From assembly GCA_022820805.1 (NCBI GenBank), contig JAJEEV010000033.1, positions 59,398 to 123,397 of the forward strand: a stretch of 64,000 nucleotides of DNA. Direction: 5' to 3'. A model generated the notes under the pieces. It did not search any database. It was not told where the DNA came from and saw only the letters and a list, made by a program, of their open reading frames with translations. The position numbers were made by a program, and so were the translations under genes. Of this stretch, positions 13,156-14,389 are shown piece by piece. Source of the stretch: Acidimicrobiia bacterium. GTDB lineage: Bacteria > Actinomycetota > Acidimicrobiia > Acidimicrobiales > Aldehydirespiratoraceae. Every line of letters begins with the position of its first letter. The stretch's first letter is position 1.

Positions 13156-14389
13156 TCAGGCGGCGAGTTGGAGTTTGGCCCTCAGGTACTCCATGCCGCG
13201 GTCGCCCTTGACGCGGTTGCAGTGGCCGCATAGGAGTTGCAGGTTGGACAGGTGGTCGGTGCCGCCCTTGGCGACGGCGATGATGTGATCGACTTCTAGG
13301 TGCTGCGGTTTGAAGTGCTCGCGGCATCCGGCGCACGAGCCGCCTTGTTCGCCGTAGAGATGCTTGCGGTTGGCAGCGTCGTTGTAGGACAGGAGTTGGC
13401 CCAGGTCGGTGCGTTGGGGGATGTCTCTGCGGGGGATGATGTCACGGAACAGTCCTTGTCGTTCCTCGATGCGCGACACGACGAGTTGGGCGGCCTTCGG
13501 GCTGATGTCGATGCCGACCCATGAGCGCTGCAAATCGTCCGCGGCGACGAGTGTGGTGGCGCATCCGCAGAACGGGTCGAGCACCACGTCGCCGGGGTTG
13601 GAGGACGCCATGATGATCCGTTCCAGCAACGCCAACGGCTTCTGGGTTGGATAGCCGACCCGCTCATTTGCGTTGGCGTTGAGATAGGAAATCTCCCACA
13701 CGTCGCGCATTGCCTTCATTCCGCTCGCACTCACATAGGTCTGGTCTGCTTTGCCGTCTTGAAATGTCGTTGCCCGGTTGCGGCCCTTGTGTCGGTGAAG
13801 GCCCTTCGGGCTATGTGGTTCGAGCAGTTGATTGAACTGCGACTCGTCCGAGCGGGCGAACATGAAGATGACATCATGCATGCGCTGGAAGTGCCGCGTC
13901 GCTCCGGTCCATCGCTGGTAGCTCCAGATGATCTCATTTCGGAACGCTTTGCGCCCGAAGATGGCGTCGAGCAGCAGTTTGAGGTAGTGGCTCATGGTGG
14001 GGTCGCAGTGCAGGTACAGCGATCCGGTGGGCTTGAGCACCCGACGAAGCTCCAGTAGTCGCACGGCCATGTAGGCGAGATAGGACTTGTCAGAGTCGGT
14101 CATCGCGGCCAACAGCATCCGGTAGAGCGAAGGGTGGCGGGCCTCCATGAGGTTGATCCACTCGGCGTCCACATCGCGCAGCGTCCATGTGTCCTTGAAC
14201 TCCGCGCCCGCGGCGGCCGAACCGATGGGGGCGGCGTAGTTGGTCTTGGAGTTGAACGGCGGGTCGAGATAGATGAGGTCCACGGACGCGCTGTTCATGC
14301 CGCGCATCACATGGAGGTTGTCACCGGTCCATATCGTCTTGTCGGCCCAGTTGGGACTACCAGCCCCCCCCCCCCGTGGATGCGCTCAT
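13156..14389 (-). CDS. DNA methyltransferase (beta-class order) with C-terminal HNH domain; out of frame at a poly-G tract near the 5' end
   Basis: TIWTGDNLHVMRGMNSASVDLIYLDPPFNSKTNY ... VLDPFCGCATTLVAADDLQRSWVGIDIS ... CAGCREHFKPQHLEVDHIIAVAKGGTDHLSNLQLLCGHCNRVKG. ATG at 14389-14387 reads MSASTGGGGW-stop with 12 G; with 11 or 14 G it reads MSASTGGG(G)AGSPNWADKTIWTGDNLH into the MTase. Confidence 0.85.
14364..14375 (-). repeat. Homopolymer tract, 12 C on + / 12 G on coding strand
   Basis: Direct count: cag-CCCCCCC CCCCC-gtgg. Confidence 0.97.

What the first reader, a model, noticed from the sequence alone, without database searches (positions are those of the whole stretch)
14360..14389. 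Poly-G(12) tract puts a DNA methyltransferase out of frame: candidate phase-variable switch
Seen: minus strand ATG AGC GCA TCC AC(G)12 CTGG. From this ATG, 12 G gives MSASTGGGGW-stop; 13 G goes into a second wrong frame ending TTSM-stop; 11 or 14 G gives MSAST-Gly tract-AGSPNWADKTIWTGDNLHVMRGMNSASVDLIYLDPPF, i.e. intact MTase. The present state is OFF by one base. Without this start the MTase could only begin at the internal GTG/ATG around 14310, losing the conserved GDNL segment. Established: homopolymeric G tracts in mod/MTase genes drive ON/OFF phase variation and phasevarions in Haemophilus, Neisseria, Helicobacter and Campylobacter; an actinobacterial example would be unusual.
Basis: partly seen in the sequence, partly recalled or inferred. 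Interest (0 to 1): 0.88.

Follow-up and report, generated by a model that had tools for sequence, protein, structure and literature searches.

The report
Poly-G switch on DNA methyltransferase-nuclease gene
A run of twelve Gs just after the start codon of a bacterial DNA-methylating enzyme (fused to a DNA-cutting domain) currently puts the gene out of frame, and relatives of this gene in marine, mostly sponge-associated bacteria of several phyla carry similar slippery repeats at the same spot, so it very probably works as a reversible on/off switch for a defence gene.

Summary
A G12 tract (14364-14375, minus strand) follows ATGAGCGCATCCAC; this ATG overlaps the stop of a 45-codon ORF, and 12 G ends translation at MSASTGGGGW*. 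The rest of the gene (13156-14385) is an intact beta-class N6/N4 DNA methyltransferase with a C-terminal HNH nuclease domain. An internal start would lose a conserved core strand.

Comparison makes it more than a curiosity. A 97%-identical orthologue starts MAVGGGGASSPNW (in frame). A 66% relative has (GA)10 at the same spot, also out of frame. Among MTase-HNH relatives from marine, mostly sponge-associated, MAGs of several phyla, G/C runs of 8 or more sit at the 5' end in 9 of 77, against 7 of 7,078 control windows (p=1e-14). They are scattered on the tree (at least 9 changes). The genome has NucS but no MutS, a repair state reported not to fix 1-2 nt indels. In congeners, long G/C tracts sit in many R-M genes, including all four Type ISP genes of one species.

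Best reading: slipped-strand ON/OFF phase variation of a methyltransferase-nuclease, probably restriction-modification used as bet-hedged phage defence. A 'phasevarion' is unproven, and tract-length variation in reads was not testable. Known mechanism; new lineage, enzyme type and habitat.

The parts
14364..14375 (-). G12 homopolymeric tract, the proposed slippage switch; present length leaves the upstream ATG out of frame with the methyltransferase
   Evidence: only G/C run >=7 in the window
14387..14389 (-). ATG start codon overlapping (ATGA) the stop of the upstream small ORF
   Evidence: sequence
14357..14389 (-). product of the present OFF state: MSASTGGGGW-stop (TAG at 14357-14359)
14386..14523 (-). 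45-codon upstream ORF (MAPDPDPP...EPAE*), probably translationally coupled to the methyltransferase start
   Evidence: sequence; no family assigned
13156..14385 (-). open frame of the methyltransferase-HNH protein (409 codons), no other disruption
13483..14283 (-). N6_N4_Mtase domain (PF01555), DPPF first and DPFCGC last: beta-class order
   Evidence: E=2e-48; fold matches M.BceJIV, M.RsrI, CcrM
13198..13335 (-). C-terminal HNH nuclease domain (PF01844/PF14279)
   Evidence: E=7e-13
14314..14352 (-). conserved NW...TIWTGDNL segment (first strand and helix of the core), lost if translation starts at the internal GTG
   Evidence: conserved columns; AlphaFold strand 8-11 and helix 14-20, pLDDT ~90
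14308..14310 (-). first in-frame internal start (GTG), the start a gene caller would use

Best explanation
A contingency (phase-variable) locus. The G12 tract gains or loses Gs by slipped-strand mispairing during replication. Lengths that keep the ATG in frame give a full-length methyltransferase-HNH protein (ON); the other two length classes stop early (OFF, the assembled state). Because methylase and nuclease lie on one polypeptide, modification and (inferred) restriction switch together, so a clonal population holds cells with and without the activity: bet-hedging against phage and foreign DNA, with a possible side effect on gene expression through methylation. Shown: tract, frames, intact domains, conserved place of repeats in homologues, in-frame orthologue, absence of MutS. 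Inferred: slippage in this population, expression, nuclease activity and biological role.
For: Tract and frames. The gene is otherwise intact, with both domains and a beta-class MTase fold. A 97% orthologue, P0001 (409 aa), begins MAVGGGGASSPNW: in frame with polyglycine although the flanking residues differ; P0072 (MVAGGG) and P0075 (MNSPPPPPP) look similar. Same-place repeats: (GA)10 in L009, (AG)12 in L012, C8-C14 in L044, L056, L069, L073, L076, L082, L083, L090. In the ten cases readable without ambiguity, nine (the window included) are out of frame and L056 is in frame. Enrichment is 9/77 vs 7/7,078 windows, and 8/76 without the doubtful L042. Repeats are scattered on the tree, 9 changes. 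MutS_V is absent and NucS present in 7 of 7 genomes; NucS does not repair 1-2 nt indels (PMC11551767). Congeners have G/C tracts >=11 in many R-M genes, including all four Type ISP genes of G002, several frameshifted at or near the tract.
Against: No reads or strain series, so variation of this tract was not seen; a wrong count in the assembly is possible. The DNA of P0001 was not available, so its tract is inferred from the polyglycine. Most MTase-HNH relatives (68 of 77) have no such 5' repeat. HNH activity and the protein's role as a restriction enzyme are untested. This genome has few tracts compared with its congeners.
Confidence: 0.78

Rival explanations
1. Assembly or sequencing error: the true tract is a length that keeps the gene in frame, and the gene is simply on.
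For: Homopolymer length is error-prone in short-read MAGs; clear poly-G artefacts exist at contig ends in related genomes.
Against: A one-base miscount would not remove the long tract or the repeats at the same place in relatives. (GA)10 and (AG)12 repeats are not typical poly-G artefacts. Several other loci are also out of frame.
Confidence: 0.12
2. Ordinary pseudogene: one frameshift has killed the gene for good.
For: It is out of frame in the only assembly seen. In the congener G006 the gene survives only as an HNH-end remnant joined to an IS1595 transposase fragment.
Against: There is no second lesion in 400 codons. A 97% orthologue is in frame and also has polyglycine. Relatives have independent repeats at the same place.
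Confidence: 0.07
3. The tract acts by ribosomal or transcriptional slippage, so some full-length protein is made at any tract length (dosage control, not a genetic switch).
For: Long G runs can slip; several relatives are out of frame yet intact.
Against: Dinucleotide repeats at the same place fit replication slippage better than polymerase or ribosome slippage. No slippery heptamer plus structure was identified (not searched in depth).
Confidence: 0.06
4. The enzyme starts at the internal GTG/ATG, and the tract is irrelevant upstream sequence.
For: An ORF from GTG 14310 is open; some database proteins are annotated from this point (for example P0023, P0058).
Against: The lost segment contains invariant or nearly invariant residues (N3, T8, T11, G12, D13, L15) and the first core strand of the fold. 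Most relatives begin upstream of it.
Confidence: 0.04

Closest known systems
Cj0031 (CjeFIII), phase-variable Type IIG restriction-modification enzyme of Campylobacter jejuni (PMC4889913)
   Same: Methylase and nuclease in one polypeptide, switched by phase variation; phage restriction switches with it (read; the poly-G nature of its tract is from memory).
   Different: Here the methylase is beta-class (PF01555) with a C-terminal HNH domain; Type IIG enzymes as I know them have a gamma-class methylase with a PD-(D/E)XK nuclease. Different phylum and host setting.
Phase-variable Type III mod genes and phasevarions (Haemophilus, Neisseria, Moraxella, Helicobacter)
   Same: Simple repeats in the coding sequence of a DNA methyltransferase toggle its frame.
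   Different: No Res partner gene seen next to it; PADLOC scores Type II models best; no evidence for control of a regulon.
Homopolymer phase variation in Actinomycetota (Gardnerella, PMC11287997; Mycobacterium tuberculosis, PMC11898584)
   Same: Homopolymer slippage in actinobacteria; in Gardnerella methyltransferase genes are among those with tracts. NucS instead of MutSL is described for mycobacteria (PMC11551767).
   Different: Those are human-associated bacteria; here an uncultured marine lineage related to Acidimicrobiaceae, and a methyltransferase-HNH family with repeats recurring across phyla.
IS1595-family elements with passenger genes (tIS)
   Same: The methyltransferase-HNH gene lies right beside an IS1595-family transposase in many relatives.
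   Different: No transposase lies next to it in this window; terminal repeats and transposition were not tested.

Membership tests
Simple-sequence contingency (phase-variable) locus | Repeat tract longer than the genomic background | tested here: met
   Only G/C run >=7 in 64 kb; five runs >=9 in the genome
Simple-sequence contingency (phase-variable) locus | Tract in the coding sequence, so a one-unit change shifts an otherwise intact gene between frames | tested here: met
   Frames read; intact domains
Simple-sequence contingency (phase-variable) locus | Repeats kept or regained at the same place in homologues, with in-frame and out-of-frame states | tested here: met
Simple-sequence contingency (phase-variable) locus | Tract length varies within a population or clone | not testable with these tools
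   No reads or strain series available
Simple-sequence contingency (phase-variable) locus | Expression or phenotype switches with tract length | not testable with these tools
   Needs an experiment
Phasevarion | Genes outside the locus change expression with methylase state | not testable with these tools
   Needs methylome and transcriptome
Beta-class (N6/N4) DNA methyltransferase | PF01555 domain with DPP(F/Y) motif before the DPF.G.G motif | tested here: met
   fold matches 8urk, 1nw6, 6pbd
Restriction-modification enzyme (single chain) | Nuclease domain on the same polypeptide | tested here: met
   HNH PF01844/PF14279
Restriction-modification enzyme (single chain) | Cleaves unmodified target DNA | not testable with these tools
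   Needs an enzyme assay
Type IIG restriction-modification enzyme | PD-(D/E)XK nuclease fused to a gamma-class methylase with specificity domain | tested here: not met
   Pfam finds only PF01555 and HNH-type domains
Type III Mod | Adjacent res gene | tested here: not met
   Neighbours are PhdYeFM antitoxin, PIN-like, HTH-M78 and Zn-ribbon/HNH proteins; other distances not scanned

The most novel reading that the evidence does not exclude
In sponge-associated bacteria of many phyla a shared, horizontally moving methyltransferase-HNH family (often beside IS1595 transposases) has repeatedly gained slippage tracts at its N-terminus, and in this actinobacterial lineage much of the restriction-modification arsenal (Type ISP, Type I, Eco57I-like) is likewise tract-controlled. 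Defence in the sponge microbiome would then be a community-wide set of stochastic ON/OFF switches, favoured in this lineage by the absence of MutS.
Probability: 0.45. Interest if true: 0.82.

Novelty: new variant of a known kind. Interest (0 to 1): 0.66.

Why it matters
Simple-repeat phase variation of restriction-modification genes is known mainly from animal and human pathogens and commensals. Finding it in an uncultured marine lineage, on a methyltransferase-nuclease fusion whose relatives have independently acquired different repeats at the same spot in several phyla, suggests stochastic defence switching is a convergent strategy in dense, phage-exposed symbiont communities; sponge metagenomes are reported to be enriched in R-M systems (PMC5099237). 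The loss of MutS with retention of NucS in this family gives a testable reason why tracts persist. It also means many 'frameshifted' defence genes in such MAGs may be reversible OFF states and not pseudogenes.

Tried and rejected
Tract expected from composition alone: rejected as a full explanation, because G/C runs of intermediate length are almost absent. DNA of the 97% orthologue P0001: sought by DNA search in all 51 held family genomes, not found. Viral homologues: 0 of 78 have a G/C run at the 5' end, so the repeats are not a general feature of the domain family. IS1595 transposase beside the gene in this window: only insignificant hits. Poly-G runs at contig ends (C48 in L030, G50 in L311) were treated as assembly artefacts; L042 (three tracts beside a contig end) was left out of the conservative count. 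Clustering of repeats on the tree: they are scattered, not one clade. Literature searches for phase variation in sponge symbionts found no relevant paper, within an open-access library only.

Full report
WHAT IS THERE. The minus strand at 14389 reads ATGAGCGCATCCAC followed by twelve G (14364-14375) and CTGGTAGTCCC. From this ATG the present sequence gives MSASTGGGGW*. The ATG shares bases with the stop codon of a 45-codon ORF just upstream (ATGA overlap), a usual sign of translational coupling, so it is a credible start. Downstream, a frame of 409 codons is open to 13156. It encodes an N6_N4_Mtase domain (PF01555, E=2e-48) and a C-terminal HNH nuclease domain (PF01844, E=7e-13). An AlphaFold model (mean pLDDT 73.6) matches beta-class adenine methylases such as M.BceJIV, M.RsrI and CcrM.

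IS THE TRACT SPECIAL? By base composition alone a G12 somewhere in 64 kb is only mildly unlikely (6 of 100 shuffles; 0.06 expected under a first-order model). The observed background is much poorer in runs than that: no other G/C run of 7 or more exists in the window, and only five of 9 or more in the 3.4-Mb genome against about 114 expected. G12 is therefore an outlier. The genome's other long tract, G14 at C48:145141, is in frame near the start of an alpha/beta hydrolase.

RELATIVES. Protein search found a 97%-identical orthologue, P0001, starting MAVGGGGASSPNW: in frame, polyglycine kept although the residues around it differ. P0072 starts MVAGGGASS and P0075 MNSPPPPPPQNW; about ten of the best 120 hits are annotated only from the internal MRGMNS or MNS start, which would be expected of out-of-frame copies, though contig ends and gene-caller choices can also cause it. 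In DNA, relatives of the window's own family have (GA)10 (L009, 66% identical) and (AG)12 (L012) at the same place, both out of frame. Among 80 loci from GTDB genomes, many from sponge MAG projects judging by isolate names (my reading of the record titles), C8-C14 tracts lie between the start codon and the conserved NW...GDNL segment in L044, L056, L069, L073, L076, L082, L083 and L090: Gammaproteobacteria, Rhodobacteraceae, Rhodothermales, Bacteroidetes and Dadabacteria. G/C runs of 8 or more occur in 9 of 77 such 54-nt windows against 7 of 7,078 windows in the flanks of the same loci (p=1e-14; 8 of 76 and p=7e-13 without the doubtful L042), and in 0 of 78 viral homologues. On a maximum-likelihood tree of 79 proteins the carriers are scattered and need at least nine changes. 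A few members carry instead an internal tract (L019 G9 out of frame; L047, L052, L072, L085 in frame).

FRAME STATES. Of the ten cases with an unambiguous upstream start (the window included), nine are out of frame and one (L056) in frame; L044 and L042 are ambiguous. This is not significantly different from the one-third in frame expected by chance (my estimate, p about 0.1).

WHY AN INTERNAL START IS UNLIKELY TO RESCUE IT. Starting at GTG 14310 removes residues 1-16. These include N3, T8, T11, G12, D13 and L15, invariant or nearly so in 22 and 45 relatives, and the first core strand and the start of the first helix of the model (residues 8-11 and 14-20, pLDDT about 90).

WHY THE TRACT SHOULD SLIP. 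The genome and six relatives all encode NucS (PF01939), and none has a MutS_V match (PF00488), while the control genomes ring in 11 of 14. NucS of M. smegmatis does not repair 1-2 nt indels, and its authors link this to mycobacterial phase variation (PMC11551767). That the same holds here is inference.

THE WIDER LINEAGE. Congeneric genomes have more tracts. Sampled interior tracts fall in Type ISP enzymes (L277, L279, L286, L320, L327, L333, L337), Eco57I-type methylases (L278, L322), an HsdM (L281), DUF1156 (L328) and DUF499 (L283) proteins, and in or before secreted proteins (L319, L321, L331, L342); others are metabolic or intergenic. The assignments of L277 and L279 to Type ISP rest on partial domain matches. 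In G002 all four Type ISP genes contain a tract of 11 or more, with the match broken at or near the tract in several. By contrast, of 30 loci with PF01555 methylases in these genomes only the window's and one other have a tract. An R-M baseline per genome was not fully measured.

MECHANISM. Shown: tract, frames, intact fusion gene, recurrent repeats in homologues, in-frame orthologue, NucS without MutS. Inferred: replication slippage makes reversible ON and OFF cells; both methylase and nuclease switch together because they are one chain; the likely benefit is bet-hedged restriction of phage and foreign DNA, as measured for the phase-variable Type IIG enzyme Cj0031 (PMC4889913). Sponge metagenomes are enriched in R-M systems (PMC5099237). 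A phasevarion effect is possible but untested.

MOBILITY. An IS1595-family transposase lies beside the gene in about two dozen of the genome-collection loci, directly upstream (within about 60 nt) in L049, L052, L053/L009, L069, L094, L095 and L107, and in the congener G006 a transposase fragment runs into an HNH-end remnant of this gene. This may explain the spread across phyla; terminal repeats were not examined.

NOVELTY. The switching mechanism is well known, and homopolymer phase variation is known in other actinobacteria (Gardnerella, PMC11287997; M. tuberculosis, PMC11898584). New here, as far as the searched library shows, are the lineage, the methyltransferase-HNH enzyme type, the recurrence of repeats at one place across phyla, and the concentration of tracts in defence genes.

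Noticed in passing
G000:C48:145141-145154 (L003, L266): G14 tract in frame near the N-terminus of an alpha/beta hydrolase (MTAAPAAERFEFPGGGGGGSKLAG...): a second candidate switch in this genome, in the ON state as assembled.
   Followed up: partly
L257 and L259 (G000:C6:3384 and C23:267123): G10 and G9 tracts lie just upstream of two large secreted proteins; possible promoter-spacing or 5' switches for surface proteins.
   Followed up: partly
L320, L327, L333, L337, L358, L361, L365 (G002): All four Type ISP restriction enzymes of a congener carry G/C tracts of 11 or more, several with the reading frame broken at or near the tract.
   Followed up: partly
L293, L317, L319, L321: A family of secreted proteins (GSVLSVAPVPLLSDPGGLLGP) in G002 and G012 has G/C tracts in or just before the signal peptide.
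   Followed up: no
L009/L053, L049, L052, L069, L094, L095, L107, L056, L076: Methyltransferase-HNH genes sit directly beside IS1595-family transposase genes, as if passengers of these elements.
   Followed up: partly
L032 (G006:C40): An IS1595 transposase fragment runs into the HNH-end remnant of this methyltransferase (88% identical to the last 41 residues): a decayed copy.
   Followed up: partly
10377-11891 (+): Protein with a GIY-YIG-like N-terminus (by eye) and three RAMA domains plus DUF4357; possibly a modification-related nuclease near the methyltransferase.
   Followed up: no
15019-16206 (-) and 14676-15146 (-): HTH plus M78 (ImmA/IrrE-like) protein followed by a PIN-like ORF: resembles a toxin-antitoxin or defence pair; PADLOC scores RmrA and PDC-S70.
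   Followed up: no
12023-12736 (-) and 12845-13126 (-): Topoisomerase-type zinc ribbon plus HNH protein and a Phd/YefM antitoxin directly downstream of the methyltransferase.
   Followed up: no
G000 and six family genomes: NucS present and MutS_V absent, so indel repair is probably weak across the whole family.
   Followed up: yes
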